Made by a program: the position numbers and the translations under genes. A stretch of DNA of 64,000 bases. It comes from Vulcanisaeta moutnovskia 768-28. GTDB taxonomy: Archaea > Thermoproteota > Thermoprotei > Thermoproteales > Thermocladiaceae. Numbering within the stretch: position 1 is the first letter of the stretch; every line of letters starts with the position of its first letter. The notes below the pieces were generated by a model, which saw only the letters and a program-made list of their open reading frames with translations, was not told the DNA's origin and did not search any database. Location: positions 1,674,001 through 1,738,000 of the forward strand of contig NC_015151.1 of assembly GCF_000190315.1 (NCBI RefSeq). The letters run 5' to 3'. Below, one piece after another: positions 4,953-32,155 of this stretch.

Positions 4953-5639
4953 ATGGATGCAACGCTTATCGCTAGCATTATTGGGCCTATAGTGACTATA
5001 GTCACGATACTGGGCACAACGCTTTACTGGCTCGGTGGTAAGTTCAAGGAAATAGACATGAGGTTCAGAGAAATAGATATGAGGTTTGGGCAAATCAATG
5101 AGAAATTCGAGGAAATAGATAGAAGGTTTGAAGAGGTTGATAAAAGGTTTGAGGAGATGAATAAAAGGTTTGAAAGGGTTGATGAGCGTTTTGATAGGCT
5201 TGAGAAGAATTTAAAGAGTTATGTTGATGAGAAGTTCGACATACTTAATGCTAGGATTAGTAGGTTGGCTGAGGCCTATAGCGATTACCAGGAGTTCTTC
5301 GTTGAGTACTTGACGGCGGAGGGCTTGTTGAAGGCTGAGAAGGCTTCAATGCTTCGTAATGAGGCGAGGAGGGTCATGAGACTTGCCGCCTCGGGTAACC
5401 CACTTAGTAAGGAGGAGTGGGATAGGATTAAGGAGCTTCTTGATAAGGACGTGCTTACGCTTGAGGAGGCCCTGGAGCTTAGGGAATTGGCTAGGAAGGT
5501 GGTTAAGGAGTACGGTGAGTACCCGGAGGCCTGGAAACTGCACATATATGCGAGCATAATGGTTGGCGAGGCAATTAGGAGGCAGTCGCAGCAACAACAG
5601 CAGGGGCAGAGGGAGCAGGGCCAGCAGAAGCAGTGTTGA
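4953..5639 (+). CDS. Membrane-anchored heptad-repeat coiled-coil protein
   Basis: Residues 5-27 form one membrane segment, followed by a run of near-perfect heptads of the form FEEIDRRFEEVDKRFEEMNK (about residues 30-95), visible also as imperfect 21-bp repeats in the DNA. The C-terminal half is charged and helical and ends in a Gln-rich tail. The pattern suggests a parallel coiled-coil oligomer tethered to the membrane. No catalytic motif is seen and I do not recognise a function. A TATA-like box at about 4921-4931 fits a leaderless start at 4953. Similar proteins are common next to nuclease or HEPN-type genes in this family, which is only a contextual hint. Confidence 0.75.
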   Translation: MDATLIASIIGPIVTIVTILGTTLYWLGGKFKEIDMRFREIDMRFGQINEKFEEIDRRFEEVDKRFEEMNKRFERVDERFDRLEKNLKSYVDEKFDILNARISRLAEAYSDYQEFFVEYLTAEGLLKAEKASMLRNEARRVMRLAASGNPLSKEEWDRIKELLDKDVLTLEEALELRELARKVVKEYGEYPEAWKLHIYASIMVGEAIRRQSQQQQQGQREQGQQKQC

Positions 5640-6060: not shown

Positions 6061-6384
6061 TCAAAAGATCCTGACAGCACCCCTCAAGAACCAGGTGTAT
6101 GGTGGCTTATCCCTATCCCTCGCATTAACGACCTTGATATCGAATAAGTAAGCCAATTCGCCAAACCTGTCCTCAATCTCCTCGATTATCCTGACCTTAA
6201 TATCCAATGGGTCCTCACTTTCAATCACTAAAAGAATATCTATGTCACTTGATCCTGTGATCCTGCCCGTGACCACGGAACCAAAGACGTAACACTCAAT
6301 ACCGTACTTCCTAAGTATCGGTAGAACCATATTAATCAACGACCTCCAATCCCTAAGTAGTTCAATCCTCCTTATAGGCTCCAT
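6061..6384 (-). CDS. MNT-family nucleotidyltransferase (HEPN partner)
   Basis: The minimal nucleotidyltransferase motif is complete: FGSVVTGRITGSSDIDILLV gives GS, ten residues, then D-I-D, with a further acidic strand in LAYLFDIKVV. Proteins of this size paired with a HEPN protein are the antitoxin or modifying half of HEPN-MNT modules. The start overlaps the end of the HEPN gene by 13 bp, which supports translational coupling. The catalytic residues look intact, in contrast to its HEPN partner, which is frameshifted. Confidence 0.85.
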   Translation of the reverse strand: MEPIRRIELLRDWRSLINMVLPILRKYGIECYVFGSVVTGRITGSSDIDILLVIESEDPLDIKVRIIEEIEDRFGELAYLFDIKVVNARDRDKPPYTWFLRGAVRIF

Positions 6385-6774
6385 AACCTCCTCACTAGAT
6401 CAACCACGGCCTCCGTGGTTTTAACAGCAATCTCAGCCCTATCCCTATCAATACTGGGTATCCCATACTGCCCAAGGCTCCTCGAATCCTCAAGTATTAT
6501 CAACTCCCTACGATTGCTACTCACGAAATCCCTAACATCCTCACCCACATTACCTCCTAACCGATTAACCACCAAACTCAGTAAAGACCTAATATTATGC
6601 GTCCTTGGAGGTTCAATGCCCAGCTTAATGAGTAGCGCCTTAACGGCTAATTGAGCCGCGATCCCCCGCGTTAACAGCCGCGGCATTGTAAAAACCTCTC
6701 TCAAACGATACCCTGGCAACAATTAAGTACTCCTCAGCCCTACTCATGAAATCCTCCGCGGTATCCAAACTCAT
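6372..6774 (-). pseudogene. HEPN-domain protein with a frameshift
   Basis: From the ATG at 6774 the frame reads MSLDTAEDFMSRAEEYLIVA and continues to the segment FYNAAAVNA, then runs into a stop at 6640. The rest of the domain continues in another frame as AAQLAVKALLIKLGIEPPRT followed by HNIRSLL. Removing one base from the five-base C run at 6663-6667 (G run on the coding strand) joins the two as a normal HEPN helical bundle. It overlaps the MNT gene downstream. It may be a true pseudogene, a sequencing error or, less likely, a programmed slip. Confidence 0.75.
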
Positions 6775-7560: not shown

Positions 7561-7630
7561 GGTGGTGGCAGGCCTTGCTCCTTCTGGGGTGGGGTAGGGT
7601 TTTTAGGTTGAAGGTTTGTGCTCTTTTTCA

Positions 7631-9004
7631 ATGGCATCCTTCCCCGGTGAACTCTTGGAAAATGGGGAGTGGGGGCCGACTACTCCCGCAATACCGGGGG
7701 AGGGCGTCCGTGAGGTGGAATTCTCGAATGTTAGGACAAACGTTGTTCGTCTATTACCCAACGGTTTTCAGGATAGGAAGTTGAGGAGACTTGCTAACAT
7801 CTCGGCTAAGTTATTTAACGAGGTTAATTATGAAAGGAGGCAACAGTTCTTCCGTGGGGAACAAGTGGATTTTAAGGGGACGTGGAAAAAGTATTATGAG
7901 AAGTATAAGGGAATACTAGGTGTTAATGCCCAGGCGGTGCTTCAGAAGAATAATGAGGCTTGGTCCTCATTCTTCTCCCTATTGAAGCTTAAGAAGGAGA
8001 GGAAATTACCACGTTTCCTAAAGCCAAACCCACCTGGCTACTGGAAGGATATGGAGACTAGAAGGAGGAAACTAATACTAGTTATTAGACAAGATAGGTA
8101 TGAGGTTGATGAGCAGAGGCATGTAATCATCCTCAAGGATTTTAAAATGGAGATTGAATTCGCTGGTAGGTTGAGGTGGTTTGGTAAGCAGGGTAGGCTC
8201 GAGATACACTATGACGAAACCAGGAATGCTTGGTACGCCTCAATACCTGTCGAGGTTGGTGTTGAGGAAACAAGGACTGGTAAGAGGAGTAAGTACATCG
8301 TGAGGGGAGAAAGGAGGAGTATACAAATCGCTACTCCTAAAGGGAGTAAGGTTGCTTCAATTGACTTGGGTGTTAACGTTTTGGCGAGTGTGGTGGTTAG
8401 TGATGGGACGTGGTTGCTGTACAGGGGTGTTAGGGCTAAGGAGGACTACTTCTACTTCCAGAGGAGGATTTCTGAAATTCAATCCTGGCTGGATAAGAAT
8501 AAGGACAGGCTCCTTGATGACGCAATTGAGGAGGTAAGGAGGGAGGTAGGGAGACTTCATGGCAAGCTAAGGAGGAGGTTGCTCCACCTCTACAGAAACC
8601 TGGCATCCCACCTCATTAAAAAGCTCCATGAACTAGGCGTCTCAACCATCTACCTTGGCTACCCATTCAACATTGCCCAGGAGAATGGTAACAAGTTCAC
8701 GGTGAACATGTGGTCATACCGCAAGTTAATGGAGGTCATTGAACTAAAGGCACAGGAGTACGGCATTAAGGTGTATGAGGTCCTTGAATACAACACGTCT
8801 AAATACTGTGCTTACCATGGTGTTGAGGTTAATAGACAACCGAGGGGTGTTGTTAACTGCCCAATGGGTCATAAATTGCATGCTGACCTAAACGGCGCAC
8901 TGAACATAATGAAGAAAGCCACAAACCCAGTGGTCCCAGCAATTAAAAAACCACTATCTTTCCTTGTCCTTCATAACAGAGTAGCACCCACAAAAGGGGT
9001 GTAA
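7631..9004 (+). CDS. tnpB: TnpB-family protein with unusual RuvC-II
   Basis: The protein (about 457 residues) has the TnpB/OrfB layout: an N-terminal helical block around KLFNEVNYERRQQF, a wedge region, then a split RuvC domain. RuvC-I is VASIDLGVNVLASVV and RuvC-III is HKLHADLNGALNIMKKA, both with the expected Asp. At the usual RuvC-II position (hydrophobic strand ending in Glu) it reads TIYLGYPFNIAQENG, with Gly instead of Glu. The zinc motif is also atypical: CAYH and later CPMGH. The ATG at 7631 is preferred; the coding could begin still later, near VRTNVVRLLPNG. It may be an active member of a divergent crenarchaeal subfamily or a cleavage-deficient one. Confidence 0.85.
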   Translation: MASFPGELLENGEWGPTTPAIPGEGVREVEFSNVRTNVVRLLPNGFQDRKLRRLANISAKLFNEVNYERRQQFFRGEQVDFKGTWKKYYEKYKGILGVNAQAVLQKNNEAWSSFFSLLKLKKERKLPRFLKPNPPGYWKDMETRRRKLILVIRQDRYEVDEQRHVIILKDFKMEIEFAGRLRWFGKQGRLEIHYDETRNAWYASIPVEVGVEETRTGKRSKYIVRGERRSIQIATPKGSKVASIDLGVNVLASVVVSDGTWLLYRGVRAKEDYFYFQRRISEIQSWLDKNKDRLLDDAIEEVRREVGRLHGKLRRRLLHLYRNLASHLIKKLHELGVSTIYLGYPFNIAQENGNKFTVNMWSYRKLMEVIELKAQEYGIKVYEVLEYNTSKYCAYHGVEVNRQPRGVVNCPMGHKLHADLNGALNIMKKATNPVVPAIKKPLSFLVLHNRVAPTKGV

Positions 9005-11684: not shown

Positions 11685-14600
11685 ATGTCAAAACCCAAAA
11701 CCAATTGGGAACTACCTAAACTAATAATACCAGTAGTAACTCTACTAGTAATAATAGGAATAGTTGCCGGGCTGGGACACCCAGCCTTAGCACAGCAGTA
11801 CGGACCAACATCAGTGCCAATACCACCAGTAACCTACACCTATACAATGTACTGGAACCTAACAGACGCAAGACTAACAATGACGTACCCACTCAGTACC
11901 TCTTACTGCCAAAGCTGTTATACCCTAATAAATCGCACAGTGCCTTGGTACTTCACAGCCGGTAAATCCTTCACCATATACATAGCCAACGCAAGCGACG
12001 TCTACTACTGGAACAGCCAGAGCCAGAGCTTTGTATTGTATTCACCTATTGAAATGACCGCTACAGCCACGGCAAACTCAACAGGAGGCGTAACCTGGAC
12101 AGTAAGCACAACACTAACCGGCGGAGTAACACCAAGCCAGGTCTACGCAAACTGGACAGTAGTGGTGGTCCTAAATAATTACGGAGGAGCGAACTGGATG
12201 GTATTTAATGTAACAACCGTAAATGCATCGTTAAACAGCCTAATGACTAACCTAACCAGCGTAAGTCCATCGACATACTTATCAACACCAACAGGCCCCT
12301 ACTACTTATTCAGACCAGTATATGGCGCTGAGACCACAAATAGCAGCCTATACGTGGTACTACCAGACCTATACTTCTTCTTCCTATATGTTGGCACGGC
12401 AACAAGCACAACATCAATATCACCGTTACCATCAACATCACAACTGGAGGCCTCAGTAACGCTGGGCACCGGCGTAACAGTCTTCGGACCAACCACCTAC
12501 AACAGCACAGTGTCAGGTGCCTCAACTAACATCTATGGCTATTCATACACGGGCTTCGGCCCAATCTACTACGTAACCAACGAGTTCAGCGGCCTGAACT
12601 CCGCAGACCACAACTACCCAAGCGTCACTGCCCAACCAATAACAATAACAGTTAATTACGTATACCCAAGCGGCCAGGCAGTAACACTATTCAACTATAC
12701 AACTGCAACAGAAAATAATGCAACTACACCGGAGTCATTTAATGCGGCTGTGGCATATACGTGGAATTATACCCATACTGGCGCATCAGGTATGGTAAGC
12801 TTAACGGCACTATGCAACGCCACTGGTGTTGACCCAGCATTGCTGGTTGGTATACCGGTGGTTTCATTCTACATAGGCAGTGTCTATGACCTAAAGGGCA
12901 ACCTAATAATTGGAAGTGCCAAAAACATACCCAACCCAATACTTGCGGAGAAACTATACGTAAAGTGGTTACTATCAACAACACCAACAGCCACCGTAGT
13001 CAGTGAGAACTACCTACGCTACTACGAATCAACACCAGCCCTGGTACCCGTCGGCTACTTCAGCGGTACTGGACCAGGCGCGCCATCATTTGCATCCACC
13101 GGATTCCCAACGCCGCAGCTCTACATATTCTATGAGAATCTGCCAGTATTCACGGCAGCAATATCGTCGGTTAGCTCAGGAGTGTCCATGGTCAATATAA
13201 CCAATGTATTCGTGTCTCTAATGCCAGTATTCATAAACATAACCCAGTACCAGCCAGGAGTTCCAGCATCAAGCCAGTTACCACTCAGCCCCAACATAGT
13301 ACCATACCTAACTGTGTACTACTTATACTCAACAACACCAACCATAAGCCAGACACCACCAACCAGCGCAGTACAGGGCATGCTATATTATGAGGAGCAA
13401 GTATGGACTAACGAGACAACCTACGGCACGTACTACCCAGCAACAATAGCCCAATTCCCACCATTTGAGCAATCCTCAGTATCCGGTGTGCTAGTTACAC
13501 CTGAGGTTAATTGGTTCCCAGCACCACCGCTCAGCGGTACGGTATCTGCCACAGCAAATGGTCCAACGTCAGTCACAATAACACCGCCAACATCGCAGCA
13601 GGTATACTACTACACCTTCTGGCTGCAGTACAATGGCATGACCGTGGGCTTTGGAACTTATGCGCTTGGTTATGAACCAGGTACTATCTACAATGAGCAA
13701 TACATGGTCAGTACACCAGAAATGCCAGTATTTGATGTGTATCCACTTAGCGAGAGTAATACAACATTATTATCATTCTACGACAATGCCACTGAACTGG
13801 CTGTAATGACACCAACGGGTGTTTTACCAAGTGGTACAATACAGTTTGCCAATGTAACCGTTGAGAGGGCATTCATAGCCGCGACATACACAGTCTATAA
13901 CGTGCAGTTCCTCAACCTATGCAATGAGACAATAACTTCGGGCACAGTCTACATAAGTGAGCTAACACCGAGTGGTATGTCCGTTACATTACCGCCAGTA
14001 CAGTTGAGTTCCTCGGCTTATATAATGAAGATAACAGCACCAATGGCCCTAGAGATATCATCAGTGTCCGGCGCGCCGTACATAGAGGCCATGTCACCAG
14101 TATTCAACTTCACATTGAACTACTACGGCTACGTAATGCCAAGCGTTAACTACACCAGTAGACAGCCCGAGTACAACTACATGCTAACTCCTGGCATTGT
14201 CAATGTTGTTTACTTCCCACTCATTGACATTAATATTCAAGTACTCAGTGAGACAACGCCGCAGTATCCACTACAGGGCTTCGTTGTAAATCTATACAGC
14301 GCAGTGACTGGGCAGAAAATGTGGGAAGCAATAACCAACTCGAGTGGCTATGTATACATAATGAATGTACCAATCAACGCCAGTTACATAACGCCAGTCT
14401 CATACGTAATGCTTAAGGTCAGGACAATAAGCCCAGCCACAGACAGTGTCTACCCATACGCCTCTGTGTCACAGCAGTATGGACAGACGTACCAGGCATA
14501 CGCAAGCGCTTTAGGAATACCGAGTGGCTACTACGCCTACACGCTTGGTACTAGGGGTCCATTCGATGAGAACTTAACGATTTACTACGAGCAGTTCTCA

Positions 14601-17600
14601 GTGCCAGTAACAACCGTATGCGGTCAAGTATTCCCAATAACCGTACCGGTTGAGAACCTACACATAATAGTAACTGATCTGCAGGGCAATGTGCTGAGCA
14701 GCCAGCCAGTCTACCCATGCGCAACGCCAAGCTACTGCCCAAGCTTCTACTACAACGTGACCCTAGTACTTGATGACCAGTACAGTCCATACTACCTAGC
14801 CAGCCAGTGGTTAGTATTCCCAACGTACTGGCTGAACCTAACCGACTTCAGGGTTGTTGGACAGACCTGGATGCAGCCTCAATACGAGGCTCTGGAGAGT
14901 ACATTCCAGTCATTACTAGCCGCTGATCAGGCAGCCTACCAGAGCGGCACAATTGGTTTACAGCAGTTTGCCGAGTGGTACGTGGGCAACTACAGCTACT
15001 ACACACTAGCCGCATTACTGGCTAACTACAGTACACCATCACCATTCGCAATATTCACATTCCCATCAATAGTACCTCACGAGGGCACAATATTCATGAG
15101 ACTATTCATGCCAGGCCAGGCATTCCAGATGAAGGTCTACTACCTAGGCCAGGAGGTATTCAACCAGATAGTGCCGGTGCCTTCACCTAATGAGGACGTG
15201 ATAATAACACCAACAGGACAGGTTGAGTACACCACAAGCAATGTAACTGTCTACATAGCTGGGCAGGCAGTGACAGTACCACCAAATGGCACAATAATAA
15301 TCGAGAGCAGTGTTTACCCAGTCACCTTCAACATAACGAGTAAGAGCGGCATATACCCAGTGGGCAACACCTACCTAGGACTAACATTCACAGACGTCCT
15401 ATACAGGGAGTACGTGATGCCACCATACTCAGCCCTAAGCACTAACATAGCCCAGAACTACATAAATAACACGGCCTATCCATTCAATGTAACAAGCTTT
15501 GGAATACTAACACCAAGCCAGCTTGAGCTACTGACAATGGGTACATACTCAATAATCGAGTCATACCAGACATCAACAGTTAATTACAACCCAAGCGCTG
15601 TGGCCAGCGAGGAGCTGATTGATAATGCCTACTCAATGGCTGGTTATGTACTGCCTAACCTAATGGGCTTCTTCGTTAATGCCAGCAGCCCAACAACAGG
15701 CCTAACACCACTATACATGACGAGTATATACCCGAACGTATTCAGCACAACGACGCCGAGTGCGGTGGCCTTTAACCTAACCATGGGCATACCAATATAT
15801 GCACATGTTGGTACATCAATAACAGCCACAGCAACGCCCAATGATACGTTCCTATACGCACCAAGCGCGGCCTACAGCGAGTATAGACTATTGGTCAATG
15901 AGTCGCTGATGGAGCCAGTAACGCCATTGCCGGCAGTCATTGACGGCTCATCAACCACATTATCAGCTAGTCCACTAACTGGCTTATACCCAATGACATA
16001 TGCAGTTGAGGTTTCACAGACGGCGAGCAGCCAGGTTAACTTCACATACTACACAGTGCCTAACCTAGCGAGCTATAGGTTGTGGGAGGCTTATGTTAAT
16101 GCCACTGGAATGAGCTCAGTCACCAATGCCACAGTTGGCATTTACGCAGCTAATGCAACTGGTTGGTACTACGTATACAGTGTTAATGTAACATCAACAT
16201 TCCAGCAGGCAATGGTTAGGACAGTACCACTATACATCTACCTGAGCTACAGCAAGATAACCAGTGTAGTCCAGTCACCAACTGAAGTGGCGGTAATACT
16301 GTACGTGAGTGGCAGCGGTACATACTACTTACTACCACCAGCCTACTATGGCGACCACACGCAGGTTGAGTATCCAGTAATAAGCAGCGGTTTCGGTGGT
16401 GTGGTGCATTACTACACGGAGAATTTGTACACTGTTGCGACGGGTTCAATGGCAGGAACAACGCAGACAATAACATTCACATACCCAACAGTGAACTCCA
16501 CGTGGTATCCATACTTCGGAAGCCCATTAACCGTGGTAATACCCGTTGGCTCTAATGGCGAGGCTGTGTTTGACGTGCCATGGTGGGCACCAACAACTGG
16601 AGCCTATGGTACAAGGATTGCGAGGTTCTGGATAATGGGCACAACAAGCACGACCAATGTTGGTTACGGCAGCATAACACCGGTAATAACACCAAGCCAG
16701 TACGTAGCTGGTACAGTATCACCACTGCCTGAGTATGCAGTCAGCAGCTATGTACTACTGAACTACATAACGCCAAGCGGTGGAGCAACGACAGTCTACA
16801 CCGGCGAGATACCGCCAGGCACAGTAACGAGCAGCGGGTCACTATACATGACAGCCATTGGCGCAGGCACAGGTGGCACATCAACGCCAATGCTAATGTT
16901 TGACACACTGTTCCCAGAGGACCTGTGGAACGTAACGATGAGCGCAATACAGGCTGTCAGTGGTGTCTATAACCTAAGGACAACAGCTCTAGAGAGCGTT
17001 GAGATCTACAACAATGCCACATTCCCAATATTCGTTACAGGCTTCATGTTCTCAACACCAACCAAGACATACTCACTAAGTGCACCAACAACTGAGGTAG
17101 GTCCAGGAGCCATCGTCGATGTACCCGCGCAGTACATCTACGGCAGCAGCTATGAGTTCACATCAACATGGTGCGACTTAGGTAACTACACACCATACAT
17201 ACCAGACCTATCGGCGACCTTCTACTACACACCACCCAACGCCACATTCTACCTAGCCAATGGAACGGCATTACCATTCACAGTATATCCAAATGGCACA
17301 GTAGCAATTAATGGTGTGACCTACAGCATAAGCCAGCTAGAGGCTCCATTGCAGTCACCGAGCATTAACTTCACGACACTCTACGCAGGCAGTGAGTTAG
17401 ACAACAGCAACACCACGGTTGCAATACCGCAGTACGGAGAGAGTGCCAGATCAAGTGTATACTATGAGTCCTACTATAACTACAGCAGTTCGATCGTTGG
17501 TGCTCAATCGTATGTGTATGACGACATGCCATACCCAGTCAATGGTAAGTGGGATATAGCTGGTTATGTTGGTGTTCCTCCATCATTGCTTAACCTATTG

Positions 17601-19151
17601 CCCAGCGCCAGCAGTGATACTGAGGCTAAGTTAGTCTTCACATACCCAACAATACCGCTAATGTCAATTGAGGATTGGGACGGTAGACCACTACCTAACC
17701 AGATGATTGTTGAGTACGGTACAGGCACATCACCAGTACTCTGCGCAGGCACTGCACCAATAGCCATTGACTTCAGTGGCGTTAATGGCCAATTACTACA
17801 GCCAATGCCAGTGGGCAGTAGGACTGTTGTGTATTGGTATGACAGCTGCTTGCTCTATACAATAACCAGTGGTGCCTACCCATACATCAACATCTATGAC
17901 ACAAGCATAAGCACTGACGTAAGCACACTGGGCAATGCAGCCACAACGGCAACTGTTGAGACCCACGTCGTACCCGCCACCGTGTACCTAAAGAGCGCCA
18001 CAGGCACTGGAATACCCGGCGCACTGGTTGTTGTGTTTGATCAGCCAACAATGGGTAATGAATTCCTAGGCTTCAACGTAACTGGTACTGACGGTTCAAT
18101 AACACCAGTTGACTATAGGATATACCCACCAGCCACAAGCCAACTACCACCAACCAATTACTACGTTGTTGTTTACTATGCAGCTAACGGCACACCATTA
18201 ACATGGCAGCAAATACACCAGGCAATAAGTAGTGGAACACCGCTTGAACTAGTGCCTGTATTTGAGAACACCTTCAGCATACAGAGGACTGTCACGGCCA
18301 CCGAGGCAATCGAGTCCTTCACACTAAGTAACATACTAACAACAGCAAATATAGTGGTTGTGCTATCAAGCTTCGGCCCAGCACCAGGCGTGACCCTAAG
18401 CTACAGCGTATCTGAACCAGAGTGCCCAGTGACAATAACAGCAGTGTCACCAGCATCAACAATTGTTGGCTATACATACACAGTATCGCCACTGGTGCCA
18501 TCACCAAGTACATGCACAACAACCACAGCAGTGAGTGGTACTGGAACGACCAATGCTCAGGGACAGTTAACAACGGCAACCTTCGTGACACCAATATCGC
18601 CGTTTGCAGCCCAAGTAACTGTGTCAGTGCAGTCATGGAAGGGAATACCACTGGGCTATACCTACACCTACTACGTAACGAGTAGCAATGCATCATCGCC
18701 AATACAGGTGTCAGTACCGGCTGTTGAGTTAACGGTGACTCCAGTGAGTGCCAGTGGTGCTCCATTGATGAGTGAGGCTACTGTGAATGTTACATGCCAG
18801 ACCCCAAGCGGTACTGTGCCAGTGGCCAGTGGTGTTGGTTCACAGACCGTTGTTGTTCCAATACCAAGCAGTGGTTCAATAACATGTACAGTGGCTGGTT
18901 ACAGCTATGGAAAGAGCGCGAGCACCACGGTGACGCTGACGAGTAGCCAGGCTGGGCAGACAATAACTAAGACACTAACAATACCAGTGAGCGGCTACTA
19001 CATACCTGGTGTGGGCTTCGTGCCTGTGAGCACATTCATACTGCTGGCTGTTGTGATAATAATCATAATAATACTAATAGTGATACTGCTAATTGAGTAC
19101 AGCAACTGGAGGAGGAGGAGACTAGCTGGCTTGCTGGGCCCGCCGAAGTGA
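11685..19151 (+). CDS. Giant cell-surface (S-layer-like) glycoprotein
   Basis: At 2488 residues this is by far the largest gene here. A signal peptide (PVVTLLVIIGIVAGLGHPAL within residues 15-36, cleavage likely after ALA-Q) is followed by about 2400 extracellular residues rich in Thr, Ser, Tyr, Pro and Asn, with very many N-x-S/T glycosylation sequons and few charges. A membrane segment close to the C-terminus (VVIIIIIILIVILLIEY) and a basic tail (SNWRRRRLAGLLG) anchor it. Local Ig-like or carboxypeptidase-regulatory-like pieces are suggested by blocks such as YPLQGFVVNLYSAVTGQKMW. Biased, uniform codon use and the strong leaderless promoter fit abundant expression. It could be the S-layer protein or a giant adhesin. 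The last 145 residues recur in the 173-residue protein at 33617-34138. Confidence 0.82.
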   Translation: MSKPKTNWELPKLIIPVVTLLVIIGIVAGLGHPALAQQYGPTSVPIPPVTYTYTMYWNLTDARLTMTYPLSTSYCQSCYTLINRTVPWYFTAGKSFTIYIANASDVYYWNSQSQSFVLYSPIEMTATATANSTGGVTWTVSTTLTGGVTPSQVYANWTVVVVLNNYGGANWMVFNVTTVNASLNSLMTNLTSVSPSTYLSTPTGPYYLFRPVYGAETTNSSLYVVLPDLYFFFLYVGTATSTTSISPLPSTSQLEASVTLGTGVTVFGPTTYNSTVSGASTNIYGYSYTGFGPIYYVTNEFSGLNSADHNYPSVTAQPITITVNYVYPSGQAVTLFNYTTATENNATTPESFNAAVAYTWNYTHTGASGMVSLTALCNATGVDPALLVGIPVVSFYIGSVYDLKGNLIIGSAKNIPNPILAEKLYVKWLLSTTPTATVVSENYLRYYESTPALVPVGYFSGTGPGAPSFASTGFPTPQLYIFYENLPVFTAAISSVSSGVSMVNITNVFVSLMPVFINITQYQPGVPASSQLPLSPNIVPYLTVYYLYSTTPTISQTPPTSAVQGMLYYEEQVWTNETTYGTYYPATIAQFPPFEQSSVSGVLVTPEVNWFPAPPLSGTVSATANGPTSVTITPPTSQQVYYYTFWLQYNGMTVGFGTYALGYEPGTIYNEQYMVSTPEMPVFDVYPLSESNTTLLSFYDNATELAVMTPTGVLPSGTIQFANVTVERAFIAATYTVYNVQFLNLCNETITSGTVYISELTPSGMSVTLPPVQLSSSAYIMKITAPMALEISSVSGAPYIEAMSPVFNFTLNYYGYVMPSVNYTSRQPEYNYMLTPGIVNVVYFPLIDINIQVLSETTPQYPLQGFVVNLYSAVTGQKMWEAITNSSGYVYIMNVPINASYITPVSYVMLKVRTISPATDSVYPYASVSQQYGQTYQAYASALGIPSGYYAYTLGTRGPFDENLTIYYEQFSVPVTTVCGQVFPITVPVENLHIIVTDLQGNVLSSQPVYPCATPSYCPSFYYNVTLVLDDQYSPYYLASQWLVFPTYWLNLTDFRVVGQTWMQPQYEALESTFQSLLAADQAAYQSGTIGLQQFAEWYVGNYSYYTLAALLANYSTPSPFAIFTFPSIVPHEGTIFMRLFMPGQAFQMKVYYLGQEVFNQIVPVPSPNEDVIITPTGQVEYTTSNVTVYIAGQAVTVPPNGTIIIESSVYPVTFNITSKSGIYPVGNTYLGLTFTDVLYREYVMPPYSALSTNIAQNYINNTAYPFNVTSFGILTPSQLELLTMGTYSIIESYQTSTVNYNPSAVASEELIDNAYSMAGYVLPNLMGFFVNASSPTTGLTPLYMTSIYPNVFSTTTPSAVAFNLTMGIPIYAHVGTSITATATPNDTFLYAPSAAYSEYRLLVNESLMEPVTPLPAVIDGSSTTLSASPLTGLYPMTYAVEVSQTASSQVNFTYYTVPNLASYRLWEAYVNATGMSSVTNATVGIYAANATGWYYVYSVNVTSTFQQAMVRTVPLYIYLSYSKITSVVQSPTEVAVILYVSGSGTYYLLPPAYYGDHTQVEYPVISSGFGGVVHYYTENLYTVATGSMAGTTQTITFTYPTVNSTWYPYFGSPLTVVIPVGSNGEAVFDVPWWAPTTGAYGTRIARFWIMGTTSTTNVGYGSITPVITPSQYVAGTVSPLPEYAVSSYVLLNYITPSGGATTVYTGEIPPGTVTSSGSLYMTAIGAGTGGTSTPMLMFDTLFPEDLWNVTMSAIQAVSGVYNLRTTALESVEIYNNATFPIFVTGFMFSTPTKTYSLSAPTTEVGPGAIVDVPAQYIYGSSYEFTSTWCDLGNYTPYIPDLSATFYYTPPNATFYLANGTALPFTVYPNGTVAINGVTYSISQLEAPLQSPSINFTTLYAGSELDNSNTTVAIPQYGESARSSVYYESYYNYSSSIVGAQSYVYDDMPYPVNGKWDIAGYVGVPPSLLNLLPSASSDTEAKLVFTYPTIPLMSIEDWDGRPLPNQMIVEYGTGTSPVLCAGTAPIAIDFSGVNGQLLQPMPVGSRTVVYWYDSCLLYTITSGAYPYINIYDTSISTDVSTLGNAATTATVETHVVPATVYLKSATGTGIPGALVVVFDQPTMGNEFLGFNVTGTDGSITPVDYRIYPPATSQLPPTNYYVVVYYAANGTPLTWQQIHQAISSGTPLELVPVFENTFSIQRTVTATEAIESFTLSNILTTANIVVVLSSFGPAPGVTLSYSVSEPECPVTITAVSPASTIVGYTYTVSPLVPSPSTCTTTTAVSGTGTTNAQGQLTTATFVTPISPFAAQVTVSVQSWKGIPLGYTYTYYVTSSNASSPIQVSVPAVELTVTPVSASGAPLMSEATVNVTCQTPSGTVPVASGVGSQTVVVPIPSSGSITCTVAGYSYGKSASTTVTLTSSQAGQTITKTLTIPVSGYYIPGVGFVPVSTFILLAVVIIIIIILIVILLIEYSNWRRRRLAGLLGPPK

Positions 19152-19226: not shown

Positions 19227-19279
19227 ATCCCTCCTCAAGGACCAACAACCTTATATTTAGCTCCAGGGATTAACAATCA

Positions 19280-20317
19280 GTGGGTGGGCAAGCCAATAAG
19301 ATTAATAGGGATGAGTTGCTCAGGCTTCTTAGGGAGGATGAGGAGCTTAGGCTAGCCGTAATGGGTTTGCTTGGCATTGTTGATGTTCAATCATCACTAA
19401 GGCAATTAATCAATGCCATTAACAAACTTGCCGAGGCCCAGACCAGGTCTGTCAATGCGATGCAGGGCATTGCCGAGGGTGAGACGAGGATTACCGAAAT
19501 GCTCGGTAAGGTGACTGACATGCTGGCGAAGATCAATGAGATGATTATGGACCTCGCGGAGACCCTGAGCAGGACCATCGACATGGTCGAGAGGCTCGCC
19601 AAGGGGCAGGAGGAGCTGGGCAGCGCCATTAAGCAACTCACCGAGGTCCAAAGGGTTACCTGGGAGGCCGTTAAGCAGTTAATTGATGGTGAGGGCAAAA
19701 TACTCGACTTACTAAGGCAGTCCCTTGACTCGCAGGGTAGGCTTTGGCAGGAGGTTAGGGTCCTTCAGGAGGGCCAGAACAACCTATTGGTTGAGGTAAA
19801 GAGGTTAGGTGAGAATATCGAGAGGTTGTGGCAGGAGGTTAAGGCCATGAGGGAGGAGGAGACTAGGTTGCGTGAGGGTCAGGAAAGGCTTTGGGAGAGG
19901 TATGATAGGCTTGATAGGAAGTTATCGGCGCTCGGCGCCAGGTGGGGCGTGTTCAGTGAGGAGGCGTTTAGGAGAACAATCGAGGAATTACTCAGTGGAG
20001 TTGGTTACAAGGTTGAGAAGTGGAGTTATAATGACGCGGAGGGCTACGTGTTCGGATATCCAAGCGTTGTTGACCTGGACATAGTGATTATGGATGACAA
20101 GGCCTTTGCCGTGGAGATAAAATCCTCAGTAAGTAGAAGCGACCTAGTGGTATTTAAACGCATTGCGGAGCTTTACGAGAGGGTCACGGGTAGGAGACTC
20201 GATGCCAAGTACCTGGTGACCTACTTCATTGGCGAGAGGGATGAGAAGTCCGTGATTGACCTGGCCAACTCCCTGGACATAAAGATCGTAGAGCCCGAGG
20301 AATTAACGAGGCAATGA
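19280..20317 (+). CDS. Coiled-coil protein with PD-(D/E)XK nuclease-like C-terminus
   Basis: The N-terminus DELLRLLREDEELRLAVMGL and the following block up to DVQSSLR define a paralogous family also seen at 31373-32155. A long coiled coil follows (about residues 45-215). The C-terminal domain has PSVVDLDIVIMDDKAFAVEI followed by KSS: the Asp and the E-x-K of a PD-(D/E)XK nuclease core, as in the DUF3782-like families of hyperthermophiles. GTG at 19280 is used. The stop overlaps the start of the HepT-MNT gene (ATGA), so the two are co-translated. DNA cleavage is inferred, not shown. Confidence 0.78.
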   Translation: MGGQANKINRDELLRLLREDEELRLAVMGLLGIVDVQSSLRQLINAINKLAEAQTRSVNAMQGIAEGETRITEMLGKVTDMLAKINEMIMDLAETLSRTIDMVERLAKGQEELGSAIKQLTEVQRVTWEAVKQLIDGEGKILDLLRQSLDSQGRLWQEVRVLQEGQNNLLVEVKRLGENIERLWQEVKAMREEETRLREGQERLWERYDRLDRKLSALGARWGVFSEEAFRRTIEELLSGVGYKVEKWSYNDAEGYVFGYPSVVDLDIVIMDDKAFAVEIKSSVSRSDLVVFKRIAELYERVTGRRLDAKYLVTYFIGERDEKSVIDLANSLDIKIVEPEELTRQ

Positions 20318-21096
20318 GCGTGATTTCCATGAGACTCAAGGGAATCCTCGAATTACTAACGAAGTACTTCGGAGAATTCCAGGCAATACGGCGGAGTGGT
20401 GGGAGTATCTACGCAATCGAGAGGCTTGCGCAATTAACGATACAGGCATTGCTGAACATGGGCGCGATGCTCGCGGTGGAGCTGAGGGATGAGAAGCCCG
20501 AGACATATAGGGGCATTGCTGATTACCTATCCAATAAACTAGGCCTTAGTGAGGACTTGAGGAGATTCCTGAGGAGCCTCGCCGGCTTTAGGAACGTGTT
20601 GGTTCACGGGTATGCGGAGATTGATAGGGGCCTTGAGGAGGAGGCCTTCAGGGAGATGGAGGAGAGGTTGCCAACCATTCTCGAGAAAATAAGCAGCCTC
20701 ATAATGAGCATCGGTGACCCGGGGCAGATAGGCATTGAGGAGTTGAGGGTTAGGCTAAGGCCAGTGTTTGAGAGGCATGGCGTCAAGTTCGCGTTCCTAT
20801 TCGGCTCAAGGGCCAGGAAGGAGGTTGGTAAGGACTACGACATCGCTATTTCAGCAAACCTCAGGAGCGCCCTGGAGATTGGCGGGTTAATAGTGGATAT
20901 AGCCGAGGCCCTGGGCGTAAGTGAGGACTTAGTCGACGTGGTCCACATAGAGAGCGCGGACGCATCAATCCTCTACTCAGTGATTAGTGATGGCGTGGTG
21001 ATCTACGGCAATGAGGATGAAGCCGTGAACTACCTATGGAGGAGGTACCTGGAACTCCTCGACATAAATGAGTACGTAAACCACCTAGAAAGGTGA
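20314..21096 (+). CDS. HepT-MntA fusion (HEPN toxin and nucleotidyltransferase in one chain)
   Basis: Residues 1-130 are a HepT-like (DUF86) HEPN domain with the RNase motif RNVLVHGY, an exact R-x4-H-x-Y at residues 93-100. The Tyr is the residue that MntA modifies with AMP in studied pairs. Residues 150-260 form an MNT nucleotidyltransferase with FLFGSRARKEVGKDYDIAIS; the position of the second catalytic Asp of the GS-x10-D-x-D motif holds Ala (D176-I-A178). Toxin and antitoxin are normally separate genes. The gene overlaps the PD-(D/E)XK-like gene upstream by 4 bp, which suggests a joint module. Whether the MNT half is still active is uncertain. Confidence 0.85.
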   Translation: MSVISMRLKGILELLTKYFGEFQAIRRSGGSIYAIERLAQLTIQALLNMGAMLAVELRDEKPETYRGIADYLSNKLGLSEDLRRFLRSLAGFRNVLVHGYAEIDRGLEEEAFREMEERLPTILEKISSLIMSIGDPGQIGIEELRVRLRPVFERHGVKFAFLFGSRARKEVGKDYDIAISANLRSALEIGGLIVDIAEALGVSEDLVDVVHIESADASILYSVISDGVVIYGNEDEAVNYLWRRYLELLDINEYVNHLER

Positions 21097-21291: not shown

Positions 21292-22322
21292 TCACTGTGT
21301 TGTTTCCTGTAGTGCTTTTTTGATGGCTTCTCTGTGTAGTGGTGTTTGCCATGCGACGTACTTCCCAATCCCGAGCTCAGGGTCCCTCTCGGGCGGTGGT
21401 TGGTCTATCCATAGGGGCTCGTCCCTCCATTGTGGTATTTTAATGGCTAAGTTTAACCTAATTAGTTTGTTCATTAGTGGTATCCCCTCCTTGGTGAATA
21501 ATGCGTCTGGATCATCAATGGCCTCCGCCAATAAATGCCTCTTCTCGCTGCTCAGCGAAGCTATGAATGCATCAACACCCCTCTCCTCAATTAAGCCCGT
21601 GATTAATCTACCCACGTCCCAATTAACCTCGTAGAGCCTACCCAGTAGTTTTGGGTTTCCTCCGGTTATTCTCCAAACCTCATTGAAGTCGGGGGTTTAT
21701 TACCCGGTATCTGCTCGTATAATTGCCTAAACCCCTCCCTACTCATGTTCCACATCGCCAATAAATCAGCCCACCTATGACGCCCAATTTCGCGTCTCGA
21801 AACACCCTCACTCGTGGCTGCTATTGCCACTATCCTCTCGTACATCTCAGGCGGGTACTCAATTAGGTTCAATAAGGCCTTCACGTATAGTGTTGACTCC
21901 CTAACGCCGATCACTTGAAATGCATCATTAACAATAATCGCCACCTTACCCCTGGTCGCCTTAATCAAGTCGTAGGCAATGTTGTAGGCTATCCACGCAA
22001 TCCTAGTAAGGGCATTCTGATTAATTGCCTCCTCAATGAGTTTCATGAACTCATCCCTGAGACCAGCCACGCTAATCTCCGCAATGGCAAGCCTGTTGAT
22101 CGGGTTCACATAGATAACCTCAAAACCCAAATCCCTAAGGAGCTCCACGGGCTGCAGGAGCCACGCAGTCTTACCGCAGCCCTCAGGACCATAAACAACC
22201 TGAACCACAGACATACCGCGCCCAGCCCAATACTCAACCCTCCCAAGGGCTTGTTCCCTATCTGCAAATTTGACCTGCAGGTTCGAAGCCAAGTTCAGCC
22301 TAATCCTCCTCACCACATTCAC
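21292..22322 (-). pseudogene. Archaeal AAA/STAND-like ATPase, frameshifted
   Basis: The 5' part encodes an archaeal P-loop ATPase: Walker A VVYGPEGCGKTAWLLQP near residue 45, a Walker B-like strand GKVAIIVNDAFQVIG, and the sensor region IVAIAATSEGVSRREIG. The frame ends at 21666, but the family-typical continuation VWRITGGNPKLLGRLYEVNW occurs at once in another frame and runs to 21292. The slip lies at the five-base G run 21691-21695. The full product would be about 340 residues. Such ATPases are abundant and mobile in Thermoproteales; their function is unclear. Confidence 0.78.
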
Positions 22323-23117: not shown

Positions 23118-23600
23118 TCACACTGAGCCTTGTTGAAGGAGGATTTCCTTAGCCTCATCTAGCATTTTCCTAACCTTATTTACGCCAACCTTTACATAGT
23201 CTATTGTTAGCTTCCCCTCGTGGAATCCCCATACGTGTAGGTCATATGCAGCGTTCCAACCATCAATAACCCAGTCACCCAGACTCTTAGCTAGGGTCTT
23301 ACTAGCCATACTTAGTAGATACGTGTACCATCGGCCCTCCCTCAGGAACCTATCATACTCAGGTGTCCTGAACTTCTCCGCCAGGGCCTTAATGACCTCC
23401 TCCGCAGCCTTGTAGGCCTTCTCGCTTGCCTGTGCAGCATCGCCCTTATTCACGTACTCCTCACACTCCCTCATGTACTTTTCAGCAATACTAATCCTCT
23501 CCCTAGAACTCTCCTCAGGATCCTTAGCACCCAGTGCATCAAGTAGTAATTCATTAACATCAATACCCAGTTCCATTAACCTCCTAATCAACCCCTCCAC
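23118..23600 (-). CDS. PaREP1-family HEPN-like protein
   Basis: A 160-residue helical protein with the family blocks QASEKAYKAAEEVIKALAEK and NAAYDLHVWGFHEGKLTIDY, shared with the gene at 30877-31380 (YDLHVWGFHEGK identical). PaREP1 proteins are a repeat-like gene family of Pyrobaculum and relatives and fall in the wider HEPN superfamily of helical, often RNA-targeting proteins. No nucleotidyltransferase partner is adjacent. The function is unknown. Confidence 0.8.
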   Translation of the reverse strand: MEGLIRRLMELGIDVNELLLDALGAKDPEESSRERISIAEKYMRECEEYVNKGDAAQASEKAYKAAEEVIKALAEKFRTPEYDRFLREGRWYTYLLSMASKTLAKSLGDWVIDGWNAAYDLHVWGFHEGKLTIDYVKVGVNKVRKMLDEAKEILLQQGSV

Positions 23601-30854: not shown

Positions 30855-30882
30855 TATCACTAATGGTTTATCACTAATGGTT
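30855..30882 (+). repeat. Tandem 14-bp duplication across a start codon
   Basis: TATCACTAATGGTT occurs twice in a row (30855-30868 and 30869-30882), so there are two ATGs 14 bp apart. The TATA box CTTTTAAAG (30833-30841) is 26 bp from the first ATG, which opens a four-codon frame ending in TAA that overlaps the second ATG (TAATG), the true start of the PaREP1 gene. Confidence 0.7.
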
Positions 30883-31380
30883 GTTTCATTAGAGTTGCCG
30901 AGGGTTATTTATGAGAAGGTTAGGGAAAAGGGCCTGGACATTGAGGACCTTGTGATATATACGCTGATGAATGTCATGCAGTTAGATCCCGGCGAGCTGG
31001 CTAAGGCGAGGCTTGAACTCGCGGATAAGTACTTAGGTGAGGCCAGGGAATACATCGACAAAGGCGATGCCGTCCAAGCTAGCGAGAAGTTGTATAGGGT
31101 CGCTGAGGAGTGCGTCAAGGCCTTGGCAGAGAAGTACAACACACCTGAGTACCAGGAGGCAGTTAGGGAGGGTAGGTGGTTCGCGTACCTGCTCGGTAGG
31201 GCCGCTAGGTCGTTGAGTGCTAGGCTTAATGAGCCGAGGATTGCCGATGCCTGGTCCAGGGCCTATGATCTACATGTGTGGGGTTTTCATGAGGGTAAGT
31301 ACGGAATTGATTATGTGAGGGTTGACCTACCACTCATTGAGTGGTTGGTGAATTATACGAGGCAGTTAGTGGCTAGGTGA
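30877..31380 (+). CDS. PaREP1-family HEPN-like protein
   Basis: This 167-residue protein shares the blocks QASEKLYRVAEECVKALAEK and SRAYDLHVWGFHEGKYGIDY with the gene at 23118-23600. The N-terminal 30 residues (VSLELPRVIYEKVREKGLDI) resemble a short ribbon-helix-type strand often fused to such proteins in archaea. The start is the second of two duplicated ATGs. The end overlaps the convergent coiled-coil nuclease-like gene by 8 bp. The function is unknown; HEPN relatives often act on RNA. Confidence 0.82.
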   Translation: MVVSLELPRVIYEKVREKGLDIEDLVIYTLMNVMQLDPGELAKARLELADKYLGEAREYIDKGDAVQASEKLYRVAEECVKALAEKYNTPEYQEAVREGRWFAYLLGRAARSLSARLNEPRIADAWSRAYDLHVWGFHEGKYGIDYVRVDLPLIEWLVNYTRQLVAR

Positions 31381-32155
31381 GTTCCTCGAAGTCATCCTCA
31401 CCATGATGCTTAACCACCTTAATGCCATTGAGCCTAGCCAGCTCAATGGCTTTACCGGTATCCCTTGACTCATTTACGTAGGCGATGATGGCTATGACCT
31501 CTTTACCAGCCTTGGCACTCCTTAATTTGCCCACCTTATCCACGAAGTCCTTAACGTCCCTAACCCTAAGCGTTGCCTTAACCTCGACAGCAATCACCCT
31601 ATTATCAGCCTCAGCATAGCCATCAAACTCACCAATATCCTCAACCCTAGCCCTCCTAAGCCTATCAACGTTAACTCCAACCTTAGCCCTAACCCAGGCA
31701 GGTAAGTAATGCCTGGCATCACGCTCAACTAACACACCCACAGTATTAGAAACGCCAGAAACCTCACGCCTAAGACCCCTTAACTCTTTCCATATCTTGT
31801 TGTTTTCCTCCCATAGTCTCCTTATGTCCTCCCTCATCGCATACTGGCCCTCACGTAGAGCCCTTATTTCCTGCCAAATCTTGTTATTCTCCTCCCATAG
31901 CTTGTTCTGGTTTTCCCAAAGTTTTTCCTCGTTCTCGGTAAGCCTCTGGACTGCCTCGAGAACCTTGTTCAAAACCTCCATCATCACTGACTGATTCCTA
32001 GCCAAAGCCTCCTGACCATCAACAAGCCTCCCAACAACATCAACCAACCGCCTAAGGGAAGACTGAACATCAGAAATACCCAAAAGCCCAATAACAGCAA
32101 GCCTAAAAACCTCATCCTCCCTCAACAAACGCAAAAACTCATCCCTAAGAGACAT
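31373..32155 (-). CDS. Coiled-coil protein with PD-(D/E)XK nuclease-like C-terminus
   Basis: The N-terminus DEFLRLLREDEVFRLAVIGL and DVQSSLRRL match the gene at 19280-20317. The coiled coil (about residues 40-140) shows repeated LWEENNKIW units. The C-terminal domain has GEFDGYAEADNRVIAVEVKA, giving the Asp and E-x-K of a PD-(D/E)XK core. It is followed by a strand AIIAYVNESRD typical of the fold. Here it is not paired with a HepT-MNT gene but lies convergent to a PaREP1 HEPN-like gene with an 8-bp overlap. Confidence 0.78.
   Translation of the reverse strand: MSLRDEFLRLLREDEVFRLAVIGLLGISDVQSSLRRLVDVVGRLVDGQEALARNQSVMMEVLNKVLEAVQRLTENEEKLWENQNKLWEENNKIWQEIRALREGQYAMREDIRRLWEENNKIWKELRGLRREVSGVSNTVGVLVERDARHYLPAWVRAKVGVNVDRLRRARVEDIGEFDGYAEADNRVIAVEVKATLRVRDVKDFVDKVGKLRSAKAGKEVIAIIAYVNESRDTGKAIELARLNGIKVVKHHGEDDFEELT

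What the first reader, a model, noticed from the sequence alone, without database searches (positions are those of the whole stretch)
19280..21096. PD-(D/E)XK coiled-coil gene coupled to a single-chain HepT-MntA fusion
The two genes overlap by 4 bp. The first combines a long coiled coil with a nuclease-like core (D...E-x-K). The second fuses HepT (RX4HXY at residues 93-100) with an MNT domain, which normally are two proteins. A sensor-like coiled coil, a DNase-like end and an RNase plus AMP-transfer module together look like a defence or abortive-infection unit that is not, to my knowledge, described.
Basis: partly seen in the sequence, partly recalled or inferred. Interest (0 to 1): 0.68.

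Follow-up and report, generated by a model that had tools for sequence, protein, structure and literature searches.

The report
Coiled-coil nuclease gene plus HepT-MntA fusion
Two overlapping archaeal genes, a coiled-coil DNA-cutting-type protein and a single-protein version of a known RNA-cutting toxin with its own off-switch, are really there and kept by selection, but they travel together in only one genus, so they do not look like a general new defence system.

Summary
Gene 1 (19280-20317) is a heptad coiled coil with DUF3782 and PDDEXK_10 domains and intact D267/E279/K281. Gene 2 (20314-21096) is a single-chain HepT (R93-X4-H98-X-Y100) plus MNT nucleotidyltransferase (D174, D176, D208). 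They overlap by ATGA. In two same-genus genomes the overlap is kept; dN/dS is 0.10-0.15.

Both families are described: coiled-coil PD-(D/E)XK family DUF1626 (2007), and HEPN-M 'occasionally fused to MNT' (2013); the 2013 table also places MNT and DUF1626 genes in operons with PaREP1. Of 52 distinct HepT/MNT fusions sampled across the phylum, 3 have the DUF3782 gene upstream and overlapping, all one orthologous locus of one genus (two more orthologues are frame-broken in poor assemblies). The closest outside relatives (54-55% identity) lack it.

Most likely gene 2 is a resident RNase that AMPylates itself (type VII-like logic in one chain), co-produced with a DNase-like partner. Self-AMPylation, toxicity and any defence role are inferred, not shown. 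More general result: the fusion is a diversified family with several deep clades; the window's clade has a shortened GSX8DXD loop.

The parts
19251..19260 (+). TATA-like promoter element (TTATATTTA) about 20-29 nt before the GTG start, compatible with a leaderless transcript of the operon
   Evidence: sequence; CCAACAACCTTATATT is conserved upstream of gene 1 in three of the same-genus loci (L096, L098, L099)
19280..20317 (+). gene 1: coiled coil + DUF3782 (PF12644, aa 185-261) + PDDEXK_10 (PF07788, aa 262-335), 345 aa; candidate catalytic residues D267, E279, K281, with E227 and R231 invariant in the family sample
20314..20317 (+). ATGA overlap of stop of gene 1 and start of gene 2 (translational coupling inferred)
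   Evidence: 4-bp overlap also in L096 and L097
20314..21096 (+). gene 2: single-chain HepT (PF01934, aa 12-125, R93-X4-H98-X-Y100) fused to MNT (PF18765, aa 149-235, GSX8DXD at 164-176, D208), 260 aa

Best explanation
Gene 2 is a single-chain, type VII-like toxin/antitoxin protein. Its N-terminal HEPN half is an RNase kept off because its C-terminal MNT half puts AMP on Y100 of the RX4HXY motif, either within one chain or across a dimer. Because toxin and antitoxin are one chain, release cannot come from selective loss of an antitoxin; it would need AMP removal, ATP shortage, cleavage or a partner. Gene 1 is an oligomeric coiled-coil PD-(D/E)XK protein (probably a DNase or DNA-binding partner), made from the same leaderless transcript by translational coupling. 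In this genus the pair is a resident, vertically inherited stress or growth-control locus rather than a mobile defence cassette. Shown: anatomy, intact motifs, selection, conserved overlap, genus restriction. Inferred: RNase and AMP-transfer activity, the way of release, any interaction between the two proteins.
For: Domains and motifs. Catalytic columns conserved over 17 fusions (Y65, N94, H98, Y100, G164, D174, D176 invariant; R93, D208 nearly so). Both motif patterns recognisable in 48 of 52 distinct fusions sampled across the phylum. dN/dS 0.10-0.15 for both genes and for each half. ATGA overlap in G000, G015 and G018 and common promoter element. Y-adenylylation by GSX10DXD MntA shown in Shewanella and in the archaeon Thermococcus cleftensis: PMC7641770.
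Against: Both NCBIfam type VII equivalog cut-offs (60 bits) are missed (53.2 and 49.3). The MNT loop is two residues shorter than the tested GSX10DXD. No expression, toxicity or structural data: single-sequence AlphaFold models were poor (pLDDT 39.9 and 58.5). No partner for gene 2 outside this genus, so interaction with gene 1 rests on one ancestral event, and its conserved order is shared by the whole neighbourhood.
Confidence: 0.5

Rival explanations
1. A two-gene defence or abortive-infection unit: the coiled-coil nuclease senses or cuts invading DNA and triggers release of the RNase.
For: Nuclease + HEPN pairings are common in defence (PMC3710099). The pair is overlapping and under selection. 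DUF3782 and HepT genes lie within 2 kb of one another more often than random placement gives (9 pairs against 1.2 expected, 4 of them this orthologous locus).
Against: The overlapping pair occurs only in one genus, at one syntenic locus; 49 of 52 fusions lack it. No defence genes next to it; DUF3782 and HepT are both abundant island genes, so the excess proximity outside this locus may be general clustering. No relatives found in IMG/VR viral contigs.
Confidence: 0.15
2. Accidental neighbours: a stand-alone HepT-MntA fusion and a stand-alone DUF3782 nuclease that became adjacent once in the genus ancestor and have no joint function.
For: Both families mostly stand alone: 136 DUF3782/PDDEXK_10 places in 45 genomes, almost none with a fusion; the closest outside fusions (L147, L148) have no DUF3782 neighbour. 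Flanking genes (2488-aa protein, ATPase_2, PaREP1) are conserved in the same order, so pair conservation is weak evidence for function.
Against: The exact 4-bp overlap and the single upstream promoter element are kept over dS of about 0.7-0.9, so the genes are at least co-expressed.
Confidence: 0.3
3. The HEPN half is only a substrate-binding half of a nucleotidyltransferase that modifies another molecule, as in kanamycin nucleotidyltransferase-like enzymes, and is not an RNase.
For: HEPN is homologous to such substrate-binding domains (PMC3710099); one-chain architecture; some fusions sit among metabolic genes (L147, L149).
Against: The RNase motif R-X4-H and the acceptor Tyr are conserved in nearly all fusions, including the window's, which a mere binding domain would not need.
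Confidence: 0.15

Closest known systems
HEPN-M (PF01934/DUF86) proteins fused to MNT (Anantharaman et al. 2013, PMC3710099, Table 1)
   Same: Same two domains in one chain; Rx4-6H conserved; archaeal
   Different: Described only as 'occasionally fused'; here the fusion is a diversified family with several deep clades, and this clade has a GSX8DXD loop
Type VII toxin-antitoxin HepT/MntA (PMC7641770)
   Same: RX4HXY in HEPN and G-S...D-X-D in MNT
   Different: One chain, HEPN first; loop two residues shorter; below both NCBIfam equivalog cut-offs
DUF1626 / PF07788 coiled-coil PD-(D/E)XK proteins (PMC1913061) with DUF3782 stalk (PMC4786415)
   Same: N-terminal coiled coil, DUF3782 and PDDEXK_10; catalytic D, E, K present
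   Different: Usually not next to a HepT-MntA fusion; this copy keeps motif III Lys, which is Thr in 13 of 35 family members sampled
PaREP1 operons with MNT and DUF1626 genes (PMC3710099, Table 1)
   Same: Same kinds of genes near each other; PaREP1 genes lie 1.2-3.2 kb downstream here, and L105 holds DUF3782-PaREP1-MntA-HepT plus ATPase_2
   Different: Here HepT and MntA are one protein and overlap the DUF1626 gene directly
DPANN MNT-HEPN fusion cluster cls.004259 (PMC6393860)
   Same: Single-chain HEPN/MNT, steadily conserved rather than patchy in a lineage
   Different: Different lineage; no comparison of sequences was made here

Membership tests
Type VII toxin-antitoxin HepT/MntA | HEPN of PF01934 with RX4HXY | tested here: met
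   PF01934 60.1 bits (cut-off 23.5), RNVLVHGY at 93-100
Type VII toxin-antitoxin HepT/MntA | MNT with GSX10DXD | tested here: not met
   GSX8DXD (164-176); G, S, D, D retained, loop two residues shorter
Type VII toxin-antitoxin HepT/MntA | Two separate proteins, MNT gene usually upstream | tested here: not met
   One 260-aa chain, HEPN first
Type VII toxin-antitoxin HepT/MntA | NCBIfam equivalog scores (NF047751, NF047752, 60 bits each) | tested here: not met
   53.2 and 49.3 bits
Type VII toxin-antitoxin HepT/MntA | HEPN toxic as RNase; neutralised by AMP on the motif Tyr | not testable with these tools
   needs expression and mass spectrometry
HEPN-M/MNT fusion proteins | PF01934 HEPN and MNT in one open frame | tested here: met
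   52 such distinct ORFs found
PDDEXK_10 / DUF1626 coiled-coil family | PF07788 over cut-off with N-terminal coiled coil | tested here: met
   72.5 bits (cut-off 21.2); DUF3782 86.7 bits; 3.50-residue period
PDDEXK_10 / DUF1626 coiled-coil family | PD-(D/E)XK active-site residues | tested here: met
   D267 33/35, E279 34/35, K281 18/35 of aligned members, all present here
New two-gene defence system | Pair recurs in different lineages | tested here: not met
   Overlapping pair only in one genus; 3 of 52 fusions
New two-gene defence system | Location among defence genes | tested here: inconclusive
   No defence system in the flanking ORFs tested, only TA-like HEPN/MNT, PaREP1 and an IS605-type OrfB/TnpB; not all window ORFs scanned

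The most novel reading that the evidence does not exclude
A genus-specific module in which an oligomeric coiled-coil PD-(D/E)XK nuclease controls a self-AMPylating single-chain RNase, releasing it when DNA damage or foreign DNA engages the nuclease.
Probability: 0.1. Interest if true: 0.6.

Novelty: new variant of a known kind. Interest (0 to 1): 0.32.

Why it matters
If the single-chain HepT-MntA proteins are active, they are toxin-antitoxins whose two halves cannot be separated by antitoxin decay, so the usual addiction logic cannot apply. That makes the open question of what switches HepT on (noted as unsolved in PMC7641770) testable in a simpler one-protein form. The clade-wide GSX8DXD loop also tests how much of the GSX10DXD definition is needed for AMP transfer.

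Tried and rejected
Single-sequence AlphaFold2 of both proteins gave low confidence (pLDDT 39.9 and 58.5); no fold search was run on such models. Sequence search of solved structures gave no significant hit for gene 2 (best E=0.088, MNT antitoxin 7ae2; 7ae9 HEPN toxin E=0.098) and nothing meaningful for gene 1. Scans of genome contigs and viral contigs found no relatives, so organism names could not be attached. Rejected: that the breaks in the G017 and G020 orthologues are pseudogenes; the giant upstream gene is also broken into several pieces on those contigs, which points to base-calling errors. Rejected: PaREP1 or ATPase_2 as specific partners from proximity alone; both are very abundant (26 PaREP1 and 10 ATPase_2 matches in this genome). 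Considered and dropped: that the second MNT aspartate is lost ('D-I-A'); the alignment shows DYD as the DXD pair with a shorter loop.

Full report
What is there. The window is positions 1674001-1738000 of a 2.30-Mb, single-contig archaeal genome.

Gene 1. Residues 36-220 are a coiled coil with a sharp 3.50-residue hydrophobic period. Pfam finds DUF3782 (E=1.2e-24) and PDDEXK_10, formerly DUF1626 (E=2.8e-20). In an alignment of 35 family members, E227 and R231 are invariant, D267 is kept in 33 and E279 in 34; K281 is Lys in 18 and Thr in 13. This copy has all of them. The K-to-Thr swap and the coiled-coil N-terminus of the family were described in 2007 (PMC1913061), and the DUF3782 stalk in the alpha/beta coiled-coil work (PMC4786415). 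The stalk length varies: 345 aa in the window, 473 and 515 aa in the two orthologues.

Gene 2. HepT-like (E=2.2e-16) followed by a Polbeta/MNT domain (E=6.6e-12) in one chain. RX4HXY is RNVLVHGY at 93-100; the MNT motif is GSRARKEVGKDYD, i.e. GSX8DXD rather than the GSX10DXD that defines MntA (PMC7641770). In 17 aligned fusions Y65, N94, H98, Y100, G164, D174 and D176 are invariant and R93 and D208 nearly so, so both active sites look intact. It misses both NCBIfam type VII equivalog cut-offs.

Is the pair functional? Between the window and G015/G018, dN/dS is 0.10-0.12 for gene 1 and 0.13-0.15 for gene 2, at dS about 0.7-0.9; both halves of each protein are constrained. The 4-bp overlap recurs in both orthologous loci. 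A TATA-like element, CCAACAACCTTATATT, sits about 20-30 nt before the GTG and is conserved in three further same-genus loci, which fits a leaderless operon transcript.

Is the pair general? In 45 genomes of the order there are 136 DUF3782/PDDEXK_10 places and 138 HepT places; nine pairs lie within 2 kb where random placement gives about 1.2, and four of the nine are this one orthologous locus. The locus is syntenic in G000, G015, G018, G017 and G020: a 393-aa gene, a roughly 2,500-aa protein, gene 1, gene 2, a convergent ATPase_2 gene and then PaREP1 genes (the 393-aa gene was not seen in the shorter G020 stretch). Adding genomes from the class and phylum, I collected 52 distinct ORFs spanning both a HepT-like and an MNT half. 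Only three have a PDDEXK_10 gene upstream and overlapping, all at this locus. Two others are loosely near one: L014/L104 (978 bp away, convergent) and L109 (123 bp away, order reversed, the HEPN motif reading RNILAYTY, and a truncated frame). The nearest outside relatives of gene 2 (L117/L147 and L118/L148, 54-55% identity) have no DUF3782 neighbour, though L147 has under 0.8 kb of sequence upstream.

What is more general. The single-chain protein itself. 48 of the 52 fusions match both motif patterns; 47 of the 52 are HEPN-first and fall into four main groups in a maximum-likelihood tree, most with full support, and five are MNT-first. The window protein belongs to a 12-member clade (support 100/99) that includes four further families of the phylum beyond the order; every member has the GSX8DXD loop. 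The 2013 survey calls such fusions occasional (PMC3710099), and a DPANN lineage keeps an MNT-HEPN fusion in a housekeeping context (PMC6393860).

Context. Flanking genes tested give no known defence system: a two-gene HEPN/MNT module (6061-6722), PaREP1 genes, an IS605-type OrfB/TnpB, glycosyltransferases. PADLOC's weak coiled-coil hits are uninformative. PMC3710099 Table 1 already notes PaREP1 in operons with MNT and DUF1626 genes; L105 shows that kind of cluster (DUF3782, PaREP1, MntA, HepT, ATPase_2).

Reading. I take gene 2 to be a self-silenced RNase: type VII chemistry in one chain. Type VII membership is not claimed, because the loop spacing, the two-protein architecture and the equivalog scores were tested and not met; the claim is that it works like one. 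Gene 1 is a known kind of coiled-coil nuclease that in this genus is co-expressed with gene 2. Whether the two proteins act together is open: the shared overlap is real, but the whole neighbourhood is conserved in order, so the pairing counts as one evolutionary event.

Limits. Searches covered one genome per species and a sample of 398 genomes of the phylum; fusions were sought with one query, and in the wider phylum only in genomes that carry PDDEXK_10, so counts are lower bounds and that part of the sample is chosen in favour of co-occurrence. The random-placement figure ignores clustering of island genes.

Noticed in passing
21292-22322 (-): The convergent ATPase_2 gene is split by a single frameshift in the window (218 + 107 aa), while it is intact in L096 (334 aa) and L097 (337 aa).
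   Followed up: yes
31373-32155 (-): A second coiled-coil protein with an N-terminus like gene 1 but a C-terminus with no Pfam PDDEXK match (GEFDGYAEADNRVIAVEVKA, PD-(D/E)XK-like by eye); its end overlaps a convergent PaREP1 gene at 30877-31380.
   Followed up: partly
11685-19151 (+): A 2,488-aa protein with no Pfam match, an apparent signal peptide and C-terminal membrane helix, directly upstream of gene 1 and conserved at 74-75% in the syntenic loci; looks like a surface (S-layer-like) protein.
   Followed up: partly
23118-23600 (-) and L108:7301-8011: The PaREP1 protein near this locus is 79% identical to one beside a fusion gene in another family of the order, while the fusions themselves are about 41% identical; suggests recent transfer of PaREP1 genes.
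   Followed up: no
6061-6722 (-): A separate two-gene HEPN (PF05168) / MNT module in the same window.
   Followed up: no
7616-9004 (+): IS605-type OrfB/TnpB (Cas12f-like) gene.
   Followed up: no
L112:4754-6398 (-): In another lineage the fusion gene overlaps an upstream coiled-coil protein with a membrane helix, similar in style to window 4953-5639; coiled-coil genes before HepT-MntA fusions may recur in unrelated forms.
   Followed up: no
L154:5020-9071: A fusion gene embedded in an array of three ATPase_2 genes on the same strand.
   Followed up: no
genome G001 contig C3: Matches appear at mirrored positions from both ends of the contig (for example 684-1043 and 290386-290745), as in a palindromic assembly artefact.
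   Followed up: no
PADLOC model PDLC01085 (C3a181): A model described as diadenylate cyclase matches the coiled coils of gene 1 and of the 31373-32155 protein; the label looks wrong or is driven by coiled coil.
   Followed up: no
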